A stretch of DNA of 64,000 nucleotides. It comes from Gemmata palustris (GTDB lineage Bacteria; Planctomycetota; Planctomycetia; Gemmatales; Gemmataceae). Positions 7,065 to 13,854 of this stretch are shown in pieces (the first letter of the stretch is position 1; every line of letters begins with the position of its first letter). Location of the stretch: NCBI RefSeq assembly GCF_017939745.1, contig NZ_JAGKQQ010000001.1, positions 4,588,001 to 4,652,000 of the forward strand, read 5' to 3'. Under the pieces are notes generated by a model that saw only the letters and a list, made by a program, of their open reading frames with translations, did not search any database and was not told the DNA's origin. The translations under genes were made by a program, and so were the position numbers.

Positions 7065-7246
7065 GGCTCGTCCTGCCTTGAGGTTGCGTCGACGACGGGT
7101 TGGGGATTTCCTATCCCGCCCTCGAAACACTGCTAGCCCCCAACAAACCGTGAACTGACCTCGGCGCCAAGTTCCGGGCGACTACCGCGCTTGCACCCGG
7201 CGCGGGCACCGCATACCATCCTCTTCACCACACTCGGGAAGTGACG

Positions 7247-9016
7247 ATGGCCCGTGACCGTAAACCTCCACCACCCGCTGGAAACGGCCCCGACTGGGAC
7301 CGCACGGTGCGGCTGTTCCAGGCGGGCGCGCCGGAGTTCGTGGACGCGATCCGCCAGCGCGTGAACGCTCCCGCGCTCGCCACGTTCGCCGAGACGTGGT
7401 GGACGGACCCGCGGATCGAAGCCAAGCGCCTGCTGTTCAACTACCTCGACCTCCCGTTCAACGCCCCCCGGCACGAGCCGCTCGTGAAGCGGCTGTTCAA
7501 GTTCGCGGACACGACCGGCGACGACGCAATCATGGCGCGGTTCCTCGTCGGGTTCGATCGCACCATCCGGCGCCGGCGCAGTACGAAGCAAAAATACAAC
7601 TATCGTTCGCGCAGTTACGAGCAGTACGAAGCCGTCACCACACCCAGCGACACGACGCTCTCGCGCGACGACCGCTCGTACTCGGGGCCGTGGTTCAGCC
7701 AGAACCGCGAACAGTTCACGCAGGGCAAGTTTCTGTTCTCGGTTCCCACCCGGAACTACCTCCGGCGCCGGGCGTGGCGGTACTTCCGCAAGCTCGGGCG
7801 CAAGGAGCCCGCGCGCTACATCCCCGCGGTCTGCGCCGCCCTGAAACTCTACACCGACGCGGACGTTCCCGACGGCCTCGCGCTGCTCGACAATTGGGGC
7901 CTCGTTCACGTCCTGTTTCACCACTCGCCGACCATTGTCTCGAAGCCGGCGGGGTGGCGCGTCGCGGACGGGGGAACGCTGTCGCGGTTGCAGCCGGACC
8001 CGATGTTCCGCAAGTTGTGGCTGCGCAGCCCGGAGCCGATCTTCGACCTGTTGGTGACCGCGAAGTGCCGGCCGGTCGCGATGTGGGCGGTGCAGATGCT
8101 CCGCAAAAACTTCCCGGACCGGCTCGCGCAACTCACGCTCGACGAGATGCTCGCGTGGGTGACGGCACCCAACGGCGCGCTGAACGAACTCGCGCTCGAA
8201 CTGCTCGAAGCGCGCGGCGGACTGGAAGAAGTCAGCGTCGAGCAGTGGTTGCGCATCACGGAAGAAGTGCGCACCGATCTGCTCGACCGAATTTGCACAA
8301 TGGTCGAGCGCAACGTGAAGCCGGAGCAGGTCACGTTCGCGTCCGCGGTGCGGCTCGCGATGCAGCGGCCCGTTCCGCTCGCGCGCCTGGGTTTTGCTTT
8401 CCTCAAAGGTAAGAAGCCGCGCACGCAAGATGAGTTGACTGCGGTGTTTAACTTGCGGAACGCGGAGGCCGAACCGCTCCGCGCCGATCTCGTGAAGTGG
8501 GCGTGCGAGGCGCTGAGCGGCCGAACGGACTTCGACCCGCTGTGGGTGCTGGAGTTCCTCGATAGCCGCTTTGAAGAGGTGCGCGAGATCGGTTGGGAAT
8601 GGCTTCAGATTGAACCGCGTGCGCGCGACGCGATCCAGGTGTGGCAACGGCTATTAGAATCGCCCTACGACAACATTCGGTTGCGACTCGTGGGAATGCT
8701 GGAGGATCGCGCCAAGGAACCCGCGGGGCTGACGAAGTTCTCCCCAGAGCGCGTGCGGTTCCTGTGGGCCACGGTGCTCCTGAACGTTCACCGCGGGAGC
8801 CGCGCGAAACCGTTCGTGGTACGGCAAATTATCGACCGCCTCACGGACCACCCGGACGAAGCCGGTGACCTGCTCCCGATGGTGGCGGTCGCACTCCGCT
8901 CGGTGCGCGGGCCGGAGTTCCGTGTGGGGTTGGCCGGCGTTGCGGGCTTCGTCGCGAAGAACCCGACGCGGAAGCCGCTGGTGGAAGCAGTATTCCCGGA
9001 GTTACAGTGGAACTGA
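7247..9016 (+). CDS. ARM/HEAT-like repeat protein of the retron locus
   Basis: 589 residues from the ATG at 7247, which has GGGAA six bases upstream; an in-frame GTG at 7241 is less well placed. The first half is basic and aromatic (TIRRRRSTKQKYNYRSRSYE, then FSVPTRNYLRRRAWRYFRKL). The second half consists of amphipathic helical repeats such as LAQLTLDEMLAWV, GALNELALELLEARG and FEEVREIGWEWL, which resemble armadillo/HEAT repeats. No signal peptide, membrane segment or catalytic motif is visible. It is the first gene of a co-directional set with a winged-helix-SWIM protein, a small protein and a retron-type RT, and two RNA-like elements lie between it and the next gene. From memory, type XIII retrons are described with an ARM-type partner. 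The assignment rests on that context. Confidence 0.72.
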   Translation: MARDRKPPPPAGNGPDWDRTVRLFQAGAPEFVDAIRQRVNAPALATFAETWWTDPRIEAKRLLFNYLDLPFNAPRHEPLVKRLFKFADTTGDDAIMARFLVGFDRTIRRRRSTKQKYNYRSRSYEQYEAVTTPSDTTLSRDDRSYSGPWFSQNREQFTQGKFLFSVPTRNYLRRRAWRYFRKLGRKEPARYIPAVCAALKLYTDADVPDGLALLDNWGLVHVLFHHSPTIVSKPAGWRVADGGTLSRLQPDPMFRKLWLRSPEPIFDLLVTAKCRPVAMWAVQMLRKNFPDRLAQLTLDEMLAWVTAPNGALNELALELLEARGGLEEVSVEQWLRITEEVRTDLLDRICTMVERNVKPEQVTFASAVRLAMQRPVPLARLGFAFLKGKKPRTQDELTAVFNLRNAEAEPLRADLVKWACEALSGRTDFDPLWVLEFLDSRFEEVREIGWEWLQIEPRARDAIQVWQRLLESPYDNIRLRLVGMLEDRAKEPAGLTKFSPERVRFLWATVLLNVHRGSRAKPFVVRQIIDRLTDHPDEAGDLLPMVAVALRSVRGPEFRVGLAGVAGFVAKNPTRKPLVEAVFPELQWN

Positions 9017-9057: not shown

Positions 9058-9269
9058 CGGTGTCCGTCGCGATCCGAGACCACCATGCTGCGATGTTCCG
9101 TCGCGGTTGAAGTTGCTCGCGATTGCGTCCCCAGGTGCGTTGTTCTTGTTCGCCCGCCCCGGACCGGTCGGGCCGAACTGAATCGACCCGAGTCCTCGGC
9201 CCGACCGGTCCGGGGCGGGCGTCGTGAACGCATCTGGTCCACGATTGAAGTCGGTTGCGGCGGACACCG
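9058..9269 (+). ncRNA. Retron msr-msd-like RNA, copy 1
   Basis: The order matches a retron RNA. The outer stem (a1) at 9058-9070 pairs with a2 at 9257-9269 over 13 bp with one G-U. An inner CCGA (9074-9077) pairs with TCGG (9251-9254). A small hairpin follows at 9088-9106 (GCGATG-TTC-CGTCGC core). A long hairpin then has an 11-bp base CCAGGTGCGTT/AACGCATCTGG (9131-9141 with 9227-9237) and a perfect 25-bp upper stem (9151-9175 with 9197-9221) with a 21-nt loop containing CTGAATCGACC. The conserved G after CCGA (9078) is a candidate branching guanosine. Flanks are nearly identical to copies 2 and 3, while the upper stem is unrelated in sequence. Confidence 0.75.
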
Positions 9270-9281
9270 CGAAACACGGGT

Positions 9282-9388
9282 GAACCCCGCCCGCAAGGGC
9301 GGTGGGTAGCCCAACAACTAATGGCAATGGTGATTGGCGGTCAACCTTTGGTAGTGAGTTTCACCCGCCGCCCTTGCGGGCGGGGTTC
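9282..9388. repeat. 107-nt palindromic repeat between RNA copies 1 and 2
   Basis: Arms 9282-9307 and 9363-9388 are complementary over 26 bases with one G-T, around a 55-nt spacer. The core CCCGCAAGGGCGG resembles the arms of the dispersed family seen at 11359, 23904 and 45256 (ACCGCAAGGGAGCGG). A related short palindrome (ACCGACCGCACGGTCGGGGC) lies just after RNA copy 3 at about 12217. Confidence 0.7.
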
Positions 9389-9406
9389 GCCAAGATTGCC
9401 AAAACT

Positions 9407-9609
9407 TGGGTGGTGGTTCCGAGACCTTCTCTGCGGCGCTCCGCCGCGGGTGCGGTTGCTTGCGATTGCGTTCCCAGGTGCGTTGTTCTTTATCGCCCGG
9501 CCCGGGTGGTCCAGGCCGTACTGAATCGACCGGCGTCTCCGGCCCGGACCACCCGGGCCGGGCGTCGTGAACGCATCTGGTCCACGATAGAAGTCGGTTC
9601 CACCACCCA
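9407..9609 (+). ncRNA. Retron msr-msd-like RNA, copy 2
   Basis: It has the same architecture as copy 1. a1 at 9407-9416 pairs with a2 at 9600-9609 (10 bp), then comes a TT/TT internal loop, then CCGA (9419-9422) with TCGG (9594-9597). The small hairpin at 9431-9449 has a GCGGCG-CTC-CGCCGC core. The 11-bp base of the long hairpin is 9474-9484 with 9570-9580. The upper stem is 9494-9518 with 9540-9564: 25 positions, one A-C mismatch, 21-nt loop. Relative to copy 1 the small hairpin changes on both sides in a pairing-preserving way, and the upper and outer stems are different sequences. It ends 43 bases before the SWIM gene. Confidence 0.75.
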
Positions 9610-9652: not shown

Positions 9653-11347
9653 ATGCTGCTGAACACGGCGTATCGCGGGCGGAGCAACGTCGCACAGACC
9701 CCCGTCGGCTTGGCGGTGTCGCTGGCGCCCAACTTGCGCCGCGACCGCGTGAGCTTCGTGGGTGTGCTGCGGCAACCGCTCCGTTTCCGCGAAGCGATGT
9801 CCGCGCTCCACGATGTCGTCATTTCTGATTTGCGCTTCAAACCAAAAGACAAGACCGGCTACGAGGAATGGAAGAAGCAAGAGGCCGCGAAGGAAGCCCG
9901 TATCCGCACCGAGGCCGTGAAACTCACGCGCGCGGAACTCGAGAAAGAGCGCGGGCGCCCGATGCCGCAGGGCCTGGAGCGGCGCTTCCAGAAGTGCCGA
10001 CAGCGGTACTGGGAGGCGCGCACGCGGTACGGCAACTTGCTCTCGCGCGAAGACCCGGAATTGTGGCGCATGCTGATGCCGTGCGACCCGGTCATCACCG
10101 TCAGCCCGGACGTGATGTTCTTCGAGTGCTTCAGTGCGGACGAGAGCAGTTACGGGTGCCTCACGGTCGAGCGCGAGGCGTTTGAAGCCGAAACCGATGT
10201 GGCGCTCGGCACGACAAACGTCGATTATTCGTGGCGCCTTTACGAACACTTTCAAACCATTCGGAGCTACCGCGAAACGCGGTTCACCATCGACCCAATG
10301 GGCTTCGAGGTGCAGACCACGTCGGACGAAGCGGGGTACCGCGAAGAGAAGATTGACCTCCCCCAATCGTGGCTCCGCGGGTTCTCGGCACTGCAATCCG
10401 CGATGAGTTTGCCGATGCGCCGCGTGCCGGTGAGCCGCGAAGGGATTTATGCGCTGGTCGCGTTCCTGAAGCGCCACAAGGCGAAGGCGTCGCCGCGTGC
10501 GGTTCGCTTTGAACTGACGCCCGGGGCACCGGTGAAGATCGTTCTCGAGCCGTGGAACAAGGAGATCGTCCTTCACGATACGCCGTACCCCGGTCCGCGC
10601 AAGGAGGTGATTCGCACCTGGGGCCGCGATCGGCTCCGCGTGTTGGGTCGGCTCCTTCCGCTGCTCGATGGCGTGGACGTGTACCTGCTCGGGACGGGCC
10701 TGCCCAGCTTCTGGGTCGCGAAGATGGGCGAGATGAAGCTGACGCTCGGGCTCTCAGGGTGGACCACGAACGACTGGACCAGTGGCGGCAGCGCGATCGA
10801 TCAACTCGCGCCCCCCGTCGCCCCTTCGACCGAGGTGATGAACGCGATGGCGGCCGCGTTCAAGCAGTCGCCGACATGGACGCTCGACGCGCTCGCGAGC
10901 AAGACGCGCGCTTCGGCGCCGGTGGTGTCGGCCGGGTTGAACAAGCTCGCGCTTCTGGGGCAAGTGATTCACGATTTGCCGCACGGCGTGTACCGGTGGC
11001 GCCAGGTGATGCCGGTCACGCTCTCGGCGGAAGTCATTGGCCCGGAAAACGAAGAGACGGTGGCCGCACGCGACCTGAGCCGGTGGAAGTGCCGCGTCAC
11101 GTCCGACACCGTGGACGCGAAGGGCCAGCGCCGCGTCGTGGGGACGGTCGACGGGCGGGCGGCGTCGGAGGTCACGCTGGACGCGGACGACCGCATTGTG
11201 GCGGGCAAGTGCGCGTGTTCGTACTTCTACACGGGCGGCTTGCGGAAGGGACCGTGCCGGCACCTTCAGGCGCTCCGCAACAAGGCGCTCGATATTGGGA
11301 CGGATGGCGGCACGCTCGATAGCTGGTTCAAGCGGTTCACGAGCTGA
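9653..11347 (+). CDS. Winged-helix and SWIM zinc-finger protein of the retron locus
   Basis: 564 residues, ATG at 9653 with GAGAGG upstream. Residues of about 395-450 look like a winged helix (PTWTLDALASKTRASAPVVS then GLNKLALLGQVIHDL), and near the C-terminus there is a SWIM zinc motif with C520, C522, C535 and H537 (CAC...CRH). The N-terminal 380 residues are not recognised, although a charged helix lies at 75-125. SWIM domains bind DNA or protein, so a nucleic-acid-binding or effector-regulating role is plausible. It sits between RNA copy 2 and the small anchored protein, on the same strand as the RT. Type XIII retrons are, from memory, described with a WH-SWIM protein. Confidence 0.78.
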   Translation: MLLNTAYRGRSNVAQTPVGLAVSLAPNLRRDRVSFVGVLRQPLRFREAMSALHDVVISDLRFKPKDKTGYEEWKKQEAAKEARIRTEAVKLTRAELEKERGRPMPQGLERRFQKCRQRYWEARTRYGNLLSREDPELWRMLMPCDPVITVSPDVMFFECFSADESSYGCLTVEREAFEAETDVALGTTNVDYSWRLYEHFQTIRSYRETRFTIDPMGFEVQTTSDEAGYREEKIDLPQSWLRGFSALQSAMSLPMRRVPVSREGIYALVAFLKRHKAKASPRAVRFELTPGAPVKIVLEPWNKEIVLHDTPYPGPRKEVIRTWGRDRLRVLGRLLPLLDGVDVYLLGTGLPSFWVAKMGEMKLTLGLSGWTTNDWTSGGSAIDQLAPPVAPSTEVMNAMAAAFKQSPTWTLDALASKTRASAPVVSAGLNKLALLGQVIHDLPHGVYRWRQVMPVTLSAEVIGPENEETVAARDLSRWKCRVTSDTVDAKGQRRVVGTVDGRAASEVTLDADDRIVAGKCACSYFYTGGLRKGPCRHLQALRNKALDIGTDGGTLDSWFKRFTS

Positions 11348-11358
11348 CGGCGGATTGA

Positions 11359-11458
11359 ACGAGCCGCGACCGCAAGGGAGCGGTGGCTAGTCGCTTCCTG
11401 AGTGTTGGATCCTGCCGCAAATGGCTGCGCCTTCCGCTCCCTTGCGGTCGCGGCTCGT
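11359..11458. repeat. Dispersed palindromic repeat (REP-like), copy A
   Basis: Perfect 25-base inverted arms (11359-11383 and 11434-11458) surround a 50-nt spacer. Near-identical arms recur at 23904-24004 and 45256-45353 with unrelated spacers. All three lie between genes, so this is a genome-wide intergenic repeat family rather than part of the retron locus. Confidence 0.85.
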
Positions 11459-11499: not shown

Positions 11500-11982
11500 G
11501 TGACGAAGTCGGTTCTGTTCGCGGGCGTGCTCGGGGGATTGCTCGGTGGGTTCGGTGGCTACGCATTGCTACGGACGCTCCCATCGACCTTGAAGTCGGC
11601 ACAGGTTCCCGACGCGCCCCGGAGCGAAGCGCGCGCGCTGGCCGATGAGTTGGTCGCGAAACTGAAGGCCGGCAAGAACGATGAGTTCCTCGCGGTCGTG
11701 CGATCGGGCTTCAACGAATTAACCGACGATCAGTTCGGTCAGCTCGGGCTGCAGATGAAGACCATGCGCTCCAATTTCACGAGGGTGTACGGCGCGCCGA
11801 GCGAGTTCGAGTTCGTTCGCGAGACCACGTTCGGCGGCGACGCCGTGCGGTTCGCGTACACCGAGAAGTTCCCGCACGGGTGCGTGGTGTGGTCCTTCAC
11901 GTATTACGCCAGCCCCAGCGGGTGGCAGGTGTCGGGCTTCCAGTACCGGAAGCTGGATTCCGCGTTTGAATCGGGGTTGTGA
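11500..11982 (+). CDS. Small membrane-anchored protein of the retron locus
   Basis: 160 residues from a GTG at 11500, with AAGGGG about eight bases upstream. Residues 5-28 form one glycine-rich hydrophobic segment (VLFAGVLGGLLGGFGGYALL), a membrane anchor or uncleaved signal. The remainder is a small alpha+beta domain with a helix rich in Lys and Glu (RALADELVAKLKAGKNDEFL) and strands such as VVWSFTYYASPSGWQVSGFQ, which recall NTF2-like or DUF4864-like folds; this is only a resemblance. It lies 20 bases before RNA copy 3 and 270 bases before the RT on the same strand. It may be the third accessory protein of the retron or an unrelated passenger. Confidence 0.7.
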   Translation: MTKSVLFAGVLGGLLGGFGGYALLRTLPSTLKSAQVPDAPRSEARALADELVAKLKAGKNDEFLAVVRSGFNELTDDQFGQLGLQMKTMRSNFTRVYGAPSEFEFVRETTFGGDAVRFAYTEKFPHGCVVWSFTYYASPSGWQVSGFQYRKLDSAFESGL

Positions 11983-12002: not shown

Positions 12003-12205
12003 GCGACCGGCTCCGAGACTTAAACATCCTGCGGCGCTCCGCCGCGGGTGCGGTTGCTTGCGATTGCGTTCCCAGGTGCGTTGTTCTTTATCGCCGGTCG
12101 AATTCGTGGCCTTCCGGCCTGAATCGACCGGCGTCGCCGGAAGGCCACGAATTCGACCGGCGTCGTGAACGCATCTGGTCCACGATTGAAGTCGGAGCCG
12201 GTCGC
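12003..12205 (+). ncRNA. Retron msr-msd-like RNA, copy 3 (adjacent to RT)
   Basis: This copy directly precedes the RT gene, the usual retron position. a1 at 12003-12016 pairs with a2 at 12192-12205 over 14 uninterrupted base pairs that include the CCGA/TCGG core. The small hairpin is at 12029-12047. The 11-bp base of the long hairpin is 12072-12082 with 12168-12178. The upper stem is perfect over 27 bp (12092-12118 with 12136-12162) with a 17-nt loop. Arms plus loop total 71 nt, exactly as in copies 1 and 2. The candidate branching G is at 12017. Outer and upper stem sequences are unrelated to those of the other copies. Confidence 0.8.
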
Positions 12206-12255: not shown

Positions 12256-13854
12256 ATGAGCATGTTCGACTGGATCTTCCGGCGCAAGCGCGACGTAACC
12301 CCGTCCGCGGAGAGCGCTCCGCCCTCCGTTCCCCCGCCACCCGATCCGCGCCCCCAGCAACAAGCGCCGAAGGCCGAACCGCAAGCCGAAGCGGTCGGCG
12401 ACCCGTACTCCGCGTCGGAATTTTTGCCCATCTCGAGGCAGGAGATCGTGGACGCGGCCCAGAAGCACGGGCGCCTGCTCGCGACCGCGTTCCAGTTCGG
12501 GCGCCAGAGCATCATCCCGCCCGTCAGCGACCCGCGAACCGAGATCATCGACCGCGCACTCGTCACGAACGGTCTCCTTTCGCCGGAAGAACTCAACGAG
12601 ATCCACCGCGTCGGCGAGGAGTACGAGAAGGTCCGCCCGACCGAACAGGGCATGGCCGCGGCCGCAGGATTGGCGGGTAACGCTGCGGTGAAAGCGTACC
12701 GCGAAGCGAAGGAGCGCGCGAAGGCCCGCAAGAAGGCCGAATCCGCCGAACGGAAGAAAGCGCGTGCGGAGGCGGTGCGGCGCCGACGGGCCACGGACGT
12801 CATCTTCCTGGGGCGCGGCGTCTCGGGCCGGCTCCACCTGCGCATGAGCGATGAGGCGAAGCTCACCGCGCTCGGGCTGCCCGTGCTGCACGCGCCCGCG
12901 GACGTCGCGAAGGCACTCGGGCTAACGATCAAGCAACTCCGCTGGCTCAGCTTTCACACCGAAGTGGCTACCCGCACGCACTACGTCAAGTTCCAGGTGC
13001 CGAAGAAGTCCGGCGGGGTGCGCACGCTCGCGGCCCCACACAAGAAGCTCAAGGCCGCGCAGCACTGGATTCTCGGGAACGTCATCAACAAGTTCCCGGT
13101 GACCGAAGCGGCCCACGGTTTCGTTGCCGGGCGCGGGATCGTGACCAACGCAAACCCGCACGTGAACAAGGCCGTGGTCGTGAACCTCGACCTCTCCGAC
13201 TTTTTCCCATCAATCGCGTTCTTCCGCGTGCGCGCGGTCTACGAGCGCTACGGCTACTCCGGCAGCGTCGCGACCGTTCTCGCGCTACTCTGCACCGAGT
13301 GCCCGCGCACCGCCGTTACCTACGCGGGCACGAAATACGAAGCCGCGACCGGCCCGCGCGGGCTCCCGCAAGGCGCGCCGACCAGCCCCGGGCTGTCGAA
13401 CCAGGTCGCGCGCAAGCTCGATAAGCGGCTGCTCGGTGTCGCGGCGAAGCTCGGTCTCACCTACACGCGGTACGCGGACGACCTGACGTTCTCGGGCGGC
13501 GCGGAACTCGCGGGGAAGATCGGCTGGCTGCTCGCGAAGGTGCGGAACATCTGCCGGGAAGAGGGGTTCGCGGTCAACGAGAAGAAGACCCGCGTGATGC
13601 GCCGGAGCGCGGCGCAGGTGGTCACGGGCGTCGTGGTGAACGACAAGCCGTCCGTGAGCCGAGACGAGATTCGCCGACTGCGTGCGATCCTTCACCGCGC
13701 GAAGAGTGAGGGGCTCGACGCCCAGAACCGCGAGGGCCGCGAGAACTTCCGCGAGTGGCTCGCGGGCAAGATCGCGTTCGTGAACATGGTCCGCCCGGAC
13801 GTGGGCGCGAAACTAAAAACCGCCCTGGACTCATTGGGCGAACGGCCGGCGTGA
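12256..13854 (+). CDS. Retron-type reverse transcriptase with long N-terminal extension
   Basis: 532 residues, ATG at 12256 (a second in-frame ATG is at 12262). The RT core spans about 240-510: VKFQVPKKSGGVRTL, the retron NAXXH motif as NANPH (298-302), LDLSDFFPSI (motif A, 311-320), LPQGAPTSPGLSN, the catalytic YADD (406-409) and the retron VTG motif (456-458). The NAXXH and VTG motifs separate retron RTs from group II intron and DGR enzymes. The first 235 residues are unusual: a Pro/Gln-rich linker (about 18-45), an acidic helical segment and a strongly basic Lys/Arg/Ala coil (146-180). It would reverse transcribe the msd part of one or more of the three RNA elements. Its start lies 50 bases after the a2 end of copy 3. 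Confidence 0.93.
   Translation: MSMFDWIFRRKRDVTPSAESAPPSVPPPPDPRPQQQAPKAEPQAEAVGDPYSASEFLPISRQEIVDAAQKHGRLLATAFQFGRQSIIPPVSDPRTEIIDRALVTNGLLSPEELNEIHRVGEEYEKVRPTEQGMAAAAGLAGNAAVKAYREAKERAKARKKAESAERKKARAEAVRRRRATDVIFLGRGVSGRLHLRMSDEAKLTALGLPVLHAPADVAKALGLTIKQLRWLSFHTEVATRTHYVKFQVPKKSGGVRTLAAPHKKLKAAQHWILGNVINKFPVTEAAHGFVAGRGIVTNANPHVNKAVVVNLDLSDFFPSIAFFRVRAVYERYGYSGSVATVLALLCTECPRTAVTYAGTKYEAATGPRGLPQGAPTSPGLSNQVARKLDKRLLGVAAKLGLTYTRYADDLTFSGGAELAGKIGWLLAKVRNICREEGFAVNEKKTRVMRRSAAQVVTGVVVNDKPSVSRDEIRRLRAILHRAKSEGLDAQNREGRENFREWLAGKIAFVNMVRPDVGAKLKTALDSLGERPA

What the first reader, a model, noticed from the sequence alone, without database searches (positions are those of the whole stretch)
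9058..9269. Compensatory changes in the outer (a1/a2) and small hairpins
The outer arms also differ between copies but pair within each (13 bp with a G-U in copy 1; 10 bp in copy 2; 14 bp in copy 3), always next to a conserved CCGA/TCGG. The small hairpin changes from GCGGCG/CGCCGC (copies 2, 3) to GCGATG/CGTCGC (copy 1), preserving every pair. The order a1, small hairpin, long hairpin, a2 on the RT strand is the retron order. A conserved G follows CCGA (9078, 9423, 12017), where the 2'-5' branch would be expected.
Basis: seen in the sequence. Interest (0 to 1): 0.8.

Follow-up and report, generated by a model that had tools for sequence, protein, structure and literature searches.

The report
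Three msr-msd RNAs, type XIII retron
A Gemmata-like bacterium carries three copies of the RNA that a retron (a reverse-transcriptase phage-defence system) copies into DNA; all three keep the same folded shape while the sequence of their long hairpin differs completely, and near relatives of the species show the same kind of wholesale hairpin swap.

Summary
Window copies at ~9058-9269, 9407-9609 and 12003-12205 each have a closing stem (a1/a2), a G directly after a1 (9078, 9423, 12017), a small hairpin, a base stem and a perfect 25-27-bp hairpin. They sit in a HEAT-SWIM-RT operon that PADLOC profiles call type XIII retron; the RT has NAxxH, YADD and VTG. The "would refute" test was run. In 102 copies from several phyla, a phylogeny-preserving covariation test found 24/24 long-hairpin pairs, 5/12 base-stem, 2/16 a1/a2 and 1/10 small-hairpin pairs significant, and none of the other ~18,000 column pairs. 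Arms pair with their own partner (mean -34 kcal/mol), not with other copies' (-19). 72 of 80 named type XIII loci carry this RNA, most as one copy; Gemmata has two or three, plus extra copies far from the RT that persist at the same sites across species. In multi-copy systems the long hairpin is swapped wholesale (scaffold 95-100% identical, stem 7-44%) while staying perfectly paired and ~71 nt long. G-U pairs are 0.6% there, against 7-19% in the a1/a2 and small-hairpin helices, as expected if it works as DNA. Reverse transcription, branch site and defence role are inferred.

The parts
7241..9016 (+). HEAT/ARM-repeat protein of the type XIII retron
   Evidence: PADLOC HEAT-ARM_XIII E 5.5e-180; all-helical model, pLDDT 87
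9058..9077 (+). a1 arm, copy 1 (ends CCGA)
   Evidence: pairs with 9251-9269, -35.8 kcal/mol
9078..9078 (+). predicted branch G, copy 1
   Evidence: G immediately after a1; AGAC in 50 of 51 copies
9090..9104 (+). small msr hairpin GCGATG-ttc-CGTCGC, copy 1
   Evidence: sequence; helix 2 paired in 99.3% of cells
9131..9141 (+). base stem 5' side, copy 1 (pairs with 9227-9237)
   Evidence: fold; 5 of 12 base pairs significant
9151..9221 (+). long msd hairpin, copy 1 (26-bp perfect stem)
9251..9269 (+). a2 arm, copy 1
9407..9422 (+). a1 arm, copy 2
   Evidence: pairs with 9594-9609, -28.2 kcal/mol
9423..9423 (+). predicted branch G, copy 2
9433..9447 (+). small msr hairpin GCGGCG-ctc-CGCCGC, copy 2
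   Evidence: sequence
9474..9484 (+). base stem 5' side, copy 2 (pairs with 9570-9580)
   Evidence: fold
9494..9564 (+). long msd hairpin, copy 2
9594..9609 (+). a2 arm, copy 2
9653..11347 (+). SWIM protein of the type XIII retron; predicted PCNA-like clamp fold in its middle part and a C-terminal CxC...CxH motif
   Evidence: PADLOC SWIM_XIII E 5.3e-182; AlphaFold plus Foldseek
11500..11982 (+). small ORF of unknown function in the operon (Gemmata-type loci only)
   Evidence: no family match; conserved in position but only 51% identical where neighbours are 93-98%
12003..12016 (+). a1 arm, copy 3 (weaker pairing extends to 11996)
   Evidence: pairs with 12192-12205, -33.4 kcal/mol
12017..12017 (+). 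predicted branch G, copy 3
12031..12045 (+). small msr hairpin, copy 3
   Evidence: sequence
12072..12082 (+). base stem 5' side, copy 3 (pairs with 12168-12178)
   Evidence: fold
12092..12162 (+). long msd hairpin, copy 3 (27-bp perfect stem)
12192..12205 (+). a2 arm, copy 3
12256..13854 (+). retron reverse transcriptase, type XIII
   Evidence: PADLOC RT_XIII E 1.3e-155; NAxxH, YADD and VTG conserved; best PDB match retron Ec86 RT, E 1.7e-42

Best explanation
The three elements are full-length msr-msd genes of one type XIII retron operon (HEAT - ncRNA1 - ncRNA2 - SWIM - ORF - ncRNA3 - RT). In each transcript a1 and a2 close the RNA (shown by covariation) and present the G right after a1 to the RT, which primes from its 2'-OH and copies the msd leftwards from just before a2 (inferred from known retrons). 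The product would be an RNA-linked single-stranded DNA that snaps into a perfect ~26-bp DNA hairpin of fixed length (~71 nt). The RT-msDNA particles hold the HEAT and SWIM proteins inactive, and phage damage to or modification of the DNA hairpin releases them (inferred by analogy with Ec86, Ec83 and Eco8). The several copies present different hairpin sequences on one shared scaffold, as a set of alternative baits. Shown here: the anatomy, conservation, covariation, Watson-Crick-only stem, multiplicity and wholesale stem swapping. Inferred: expression, reverse transcription, branch site, effector control and defence.
For: Type XIII gene set. Retron RT motifs and retron RTs as best PDB matches. 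Same RNA at 72 of 80 named type XIII loci in Planctomycetota, Verrucomicrobiota, Myxococcota and others. Covariation in 102 copies: 24/24, 5/12, 2/16 and 1/10 pairs significant, none off-structure; 96.1% of cells paired against 34-47% when slid. Arm swap test: between arm classes mean penalty 31 kcal/mol, 0 of 1028 comparisons neutral or favourable. Long-stem core: 1185 Watson-Crick, 7 G-U, 32 mismatches, against 6.7% G-U in a1/a2 and 18.8% in the small hairpin. Hairpin length 71.2 +/- 1.1 nt. In the genus, all 13 genomes with an intact SWIM gene have the RNA; of 6 without, only the two with operon remnants keep one, and both copies look decayed. a1 ending directly before the G, and GAGC/CAGA contexts, match known retrons (PMC6868368).
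Against: No transcript, msDNA or phage data. GAGA context is not the commonest TAGC. In 51 copies alone the small hairpin and CCGA/TCGG are not individually significant. The bait idea has no direct support: no phage matches to the stems and no enrichment of palindromic sites in them.
Confidence: 0.88

Rival explanations
1. Only one copy (position 3, next to the RT) works; copies 1 and 2 are recent duplicates on the way to decay.
For: Most type XIII systems outside Gemmata have one copy, and outside the Gemmata/Isosphaera relatives it lies between SWIM and RT; two orphan copies are broken by IS elements.
Against: Copies 1 and 2 are fully paired in every helix and have orthologues at the same positions in related genomes with compensatory differences. 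G400 has no copy at position 3 and keeps position 1 in the operon; many Isosphaeraceae and related loci have only a HEAT-SWIM copy.
Confidence: 0.1
2. The long hairpins are perfect because DNA-level processes (template switching at palindromes, gene conversion) keep correcting them, not because the DNA hairpin is selected.
For: Wholesale stem replacement with both arms changing together; near absence of G-U.
Against: Constant 71-nt length and position, conserved apical motif and dependence on the retron genes point to selection; the genome's other palindromes (I1) are unrelated. The two ideas can both be true (mechanism of change versus reason for keeping).
Confidence: 0.2
3. Not a retron: a structured RNA or dispersed palindromic element that happens to sit beside an RT gene.
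For: Copies exist far from the RT; the genome has many dispersed palindromes.
Against: Strict association with type XIII genes across phyla; retron order and motifs; no Rfam family reaches threshold.
Confidence: 0.02

Closest known systems
Type XIII retron (HEAT-ARM / SWIM / RT; PADLOC models after Mestre et al. 2020)
   Same: All three protein families match with E below 1e-150; same gene order; homologous ncRNA in nearly all relatives.
   Different: Two or three ncRNAs per operon instead of one, plus copies elsewhere in the genome; an extra small ORF. Whether the type XIII ncRNA has already been modelled (e.g. in PADLOC's covariance models) could not be checked; the 2020 paper is not held.
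Retron-Eco1 (Ec86)
   Same: Closest RT in the PDB by sequence (1.7e-42); a1 ends directly before the priming G (own knowledge of Ec86); long DNA stem-loop reported to engage the effector and be the target of a phage Dcm-like methyltransferase (PMC13158370).
   Different: Different effectors, one ncRNA, no ~200-residue N-terminal extension on the RT.
Retron-Mxa2 (Mx65) and Retron-Eco2 (Ec67) priming contexts
   Same: GAGC and CAGA are reported priming-G contexts (PMC6868368), close to the GAGA/GAGC seen here.
   Different: No sequence comparison was made; Mx65 lacks the N of NAxxH, which is present here.

Membership tests
Retron | RT with NAxxH (region X) and VTG (region Y) and an intact YxDD | tested here: met
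   N298-A-N-P-H302, V456-T-G458 and YADD; A299, H302 and VTG invariant in 13 orthologues
Retron | Inverted repeats a1/a2 closing the msr-msd | tested here: met
   cognate duplex -34.4 against -18.9 kcal/mol; 2 of 16 unfitted column pairs significant
Retron | Conserved G directly 3' of a1 | tested here: met
   AGAC in 50 of 51 copies; AGAC or AGCC in 58 of 62 further copies, where AG was imposed by the anchoring
Retron | msd able to form a DNA stem-loop | tested here: met
   predicted cDNA of copy 1 folds at -51.1 kcal/mol, z -9.2; stem core 97% Watson-Crick
Retron | Production of msDNA with a 2'-5' linkage | not testable with these tools
   needs RT-DNA sequencing
Type XIII retron | HEAT-ARM and SWIM partner genes next to a type XIII RT | tested here: met
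Type XIII retron | ncRNA homologous to that of other type XIII loci | tested here: met
   72 of 80 loci
Type XIII retron | Anti-phage activity | not testable with these tools
   no phage assay
Known Rfam RNA family | match above gathering score | tested here: not met
   no match; only sub-threshold hits, mostly miRNA-like hairpins

The most novel reading that the evidence does not exclude
One RT serves a family of msr-msd genes, in the operon and at conserved distant sites, whose DNA hairpins are exchanged wholesale under diversifying selection, so that a single defence system displays several different DNA baits; a clamp-like (PCNA-fold) SWIM protein recognises the hairpin by duplex shape and length rather than sequence, which would leave the sequence free to vary.
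Probability: 0.3. Interest if true: 0.85.

Novelty: new variant of a known kind. Interest (0 to 1): 0.66.

Why it matters
Retrons are usually described with one ncRNA. A retron with several ncRNAs whose DNA stems differ completely on an unchanged scaffold makes an open question testable: does the msDNA sequence decide which phage trigger is sensed? A recent commentary states that this relationship is still unclear (PMC13158370). The alignment gives type XIII retrons a covariation-supported RNA family spanning several phyla, useful for annotation and as a new scaffold for making ssDNA in cells. Copies far from the RT that persist at fixed sites suggest ncRNAs used in trans, which genome scans restricted to RT neighbourhoods would miss.

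Tried and rejected
Stems as CRISPR-like phage-derived sequence: blastn of 40 of the distinct arms against 50,697 phage records found nothing; a 20-mer gave 0 and an 18-mer 1 match in viral contigs, the latter not extending, about what chance gives; a whole-ncRNA pattern gave no match in viral contigs. Stems matching the own chromosome: only the copies themselves plus one 93% match. Stems as carriers of palindromic (restriction/methylation-like) sites: not enriched over shuffles. The first arm-class assignment mixed three B2 copies into position 1 and was redone. A first G-U count for the long stem was inflated by flanking T-runs and was replaced by the in-register 24-bp core. Mestre et al. 2020 is not held. 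Literature searches found nothing on type XIII ncRNAs or multi-ncRNA retrons, but the library is open-access only. No full covariance model was built: at about 240 positions it would probably exceed the calibration limit, so nhmmer plus structural checks were used.

Full report
CHECKING THE OBSERVATION. The sequence is as described. Three related ~200-nt elements lie at 9058-9269, 9407-9609 and 12003-12205; copies 2 and 3 are 82% and 73% identical to copy 1 in their common part, all on the + strand with the RT. Arms, small hairpins and the G after CCGA are at the stated coordinates. Two details need correcting: the 14 bp of copy 3 include CCGA/TCGG while the 13 and 10 bp of copies 1 and 2 do not; and the small-hairpin difference is one compensatory pair plus one wobble. 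Each copy folds far better than dinucleotide shuffles (z -10.2, -8.8, -9.4).

WHAT SURROUNDS IT. The genes are 7241-9016, 9653-11347 and 12256-13854, which PADLOC profiles name HEAT-ARM_XIII, SWIM_XIII and RT_XIII, with an unassigned ORF at 11500-11982. The RT has the retron motifs NAxxH and VTG and an intact YADD; its best solved matches are retron RTs, Ec86 first. Copies 1 and 2 lie between HEAT and SWIM, copy 3 between the small ORF and the RT. The nearest named relative is Gemmata sp. IIL30 (98% in SWIM).

RELATED SEQUENCES. Iterative nhmmer on Planctomycetota loci gave 51 complete copies. A scan of named genomes with a SWIM profile gave 80 type XIII loci; 72 carry the same RNA, usually once, between SWIM and RT or between HEAT and SWIM. 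They include Verrucomicrobiota (Chthoniobacter), Myxococcota (Myxococcus, Polyangium) and other phyla. Two or more copies occur in Gemmata and relatives, Paludisphaera soli, Limnoglobus roseus, a Phycisphaeraceae MAG and Planctomycetales bacterium 10988.

I wrote an R-scape-like test: G-statistic with average-product correction, null alignments made by redistributing the inferred substitutions of each branch over columns on a FastTree tree. With 51 copies, 22 of 24 long-stem and 2 of 11 base-stem pairs were significant and nothing else. With 102 copies, 24/24 long-stem, 5/12 base-stem, 2/16 a1/a2 and 1/10 small-hairpin pairs were significant among 18,145 pairs tested, and no pair outside the structure. 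RNAalifold found two-sided changes in 36 of 46 pairs. Counting the outer pairs, small hairpin and base stem gives 96.1% paired cells against 34-47% when partners are slid by 1-3 columns. Because arms evolve by position, I also tested swaps: cognate a1/a2 -34.4 against non-cognate -18.9 kcal/mol; within one position class swapping costs 5-8 kcal/mol except for the orphan class (1.1), and between classes 31 with no neutral case in 1028. Caveats: the a1/a2 columns were not gap-fitted, which costs power; the long-stem arms were put in register by their own pairing, which favours that helix; recombination between copies means one tree is an approximation.

THE LONG HAIRPIN IS HYPERVARIABLE BUT PERFECT. 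Over 51 copies the 24-bp core gives 1185 Watson-Crick, 7 G-U and 32 mismatched cells; over 113 copies 2555, 25 and 132. G-U pairs are 6.7% in a1/a2, 18.8% in the small hairpin and 2.9% in the base stem. A helix that only had to work as RNA would tolerate G-U; one that works as DNA would not, since the cDNA then has C-A. Length is nearly fixed, 71.2 +/- 1.1 nt, and the apical CTGAATC-RAC-CTGC-GTY motif is conserved in Gemmata. Yet copy 3 of the window and its orthologues in two close species are 95-98% identical on both sides of the stem and 30-44% (5' arm) and 7-37% (3' arm) within it. In multi-copy systems pairs with scaffold identity of 97% or more have median stem identity 0.42; in single-copy systems 1.00 (few independent pairs). 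Stem types are also shared between more distant species (window copy 3 with G393 and G398).

COPIES AWAY FROM THE RT. The own genome has a fourth copy 0.75 Mb away, split by a transposase-bearing insertion with a 12-nt duplication. The same kind of site, beside a planctomycete-cytochrome/WD40 gene, holds a copy or remnant in seven genomes. Another site, between nfeD and floA genes, holds one in four. All 13 genus genomes with an intact SWIM gene have the RNA; of the 6 without, only two have it, and both keep remnants of the HEAT-SWIM-ORF-RT operon and a weakened (G392, a1/a2 -22.9 kcal/mol) or gutted (G395) copy. This fits function that depends on the RT in trans, but the loss cases number only two, and two orphan copies are interrupted in genomes with an intact operon.

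HOW IT MOST LIKELY WORKS. Step 1, folding with a1/a2 closed: supported by covariation. Step 2, priming from G9078, G9423 or G12017 and copying from just upstream of a2: inferred; the literature places the priming G within or immediately after the a1 stem and reports GAGC and CAGA contexts (PMC6868368). Step 3, a DNA hairpin: inferred; supported by the lack of G-U and by the DNA fold. Step 4, control of the HEAT and SWIM proteins and release on infection: analogy only, from Ec86 (methylation of the stem-loop), Ec83 (msDNA degradation) and Eco8 (SSB binding) (PMC13158370). An unexpected structural hint: the SWIM protein's AlphaFold model (pLDDT 77) matches PCNA clamps (503 matches with E <= 1e-3, best 1.4e-9, TM by target 0.56-0.73 among the best 50), without any sequence match. 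A clamp could read a duplex of set length regardless of sequence, which would explain fixed length with free sequence. This is a hypothesis.

NOVELTY. A member of type XIII retrons by every feature tested, with a variant organisation: several ncRNAs per RT, distant copies, and wholesale swapping of the DNA-coding stem. I found no description of this in the open-access library, but key subscription papers and covariance-model files could not be consulted.

Noticed in passing
window 9653-11347 (SWIM_XIII protein): AlphaFold model matches PCNA sliding clamps in the PDB (503 Foldseek matches with E <= 1e-3, best 1.4e-9) though no sequence similarity is detectable; the pattern of strands and helices at about residues 147-367 fits a clamp fold.
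   Followed up: partly
L007 8611-10060 (own genome C1:5346610-5348059): A fourth, orphan ncRNA copy without an RT within the fetched 14 kb, split by an insertion whose protein matches DDE_Tnp_1 families, with a 12-nt duplication GATTGCGTCCCC; the orthologous orphan in G393 is also interrupted by a transposase gene.
   Followed up: partly
window 11500-11982: The small ORF is only 51% identical to its orthologues in two species where HEAT, SWIM and RT are 93-98% identical, so it too changes fast or is replaced.
   Followed up: no
L046 (own genome C1:1124149-1127372): A second SWIM + RT system, with relatives in most genomes of the genus checked, has its own inverted repeat between SWIM and RT, unrelated in sequence to the RNA studied here.
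   Followed up: partly
window 9279-9391 and 11359-11458: Large inverted repeats next to the ncRNAs; the core CCCGCCCGCAAGGGCGG of the first occurs 87 times (at most 1 mismatch) in the genome, a REP-like dispersed palindrome.
   Followed up: partly
L135 6203-6872 (G417): An array of three ncRNA copies in tandem at least 2.3 Mb from the RT operon in another genus of the family; their arms differ from each other.
   Followed up: no
L148 and L149 (G392, G395): Decayed type XIII operons: N-terminal HEAT, C-terminal SWIM, small ORF and C-terminal RT remnants remain.
   Followed up: partly
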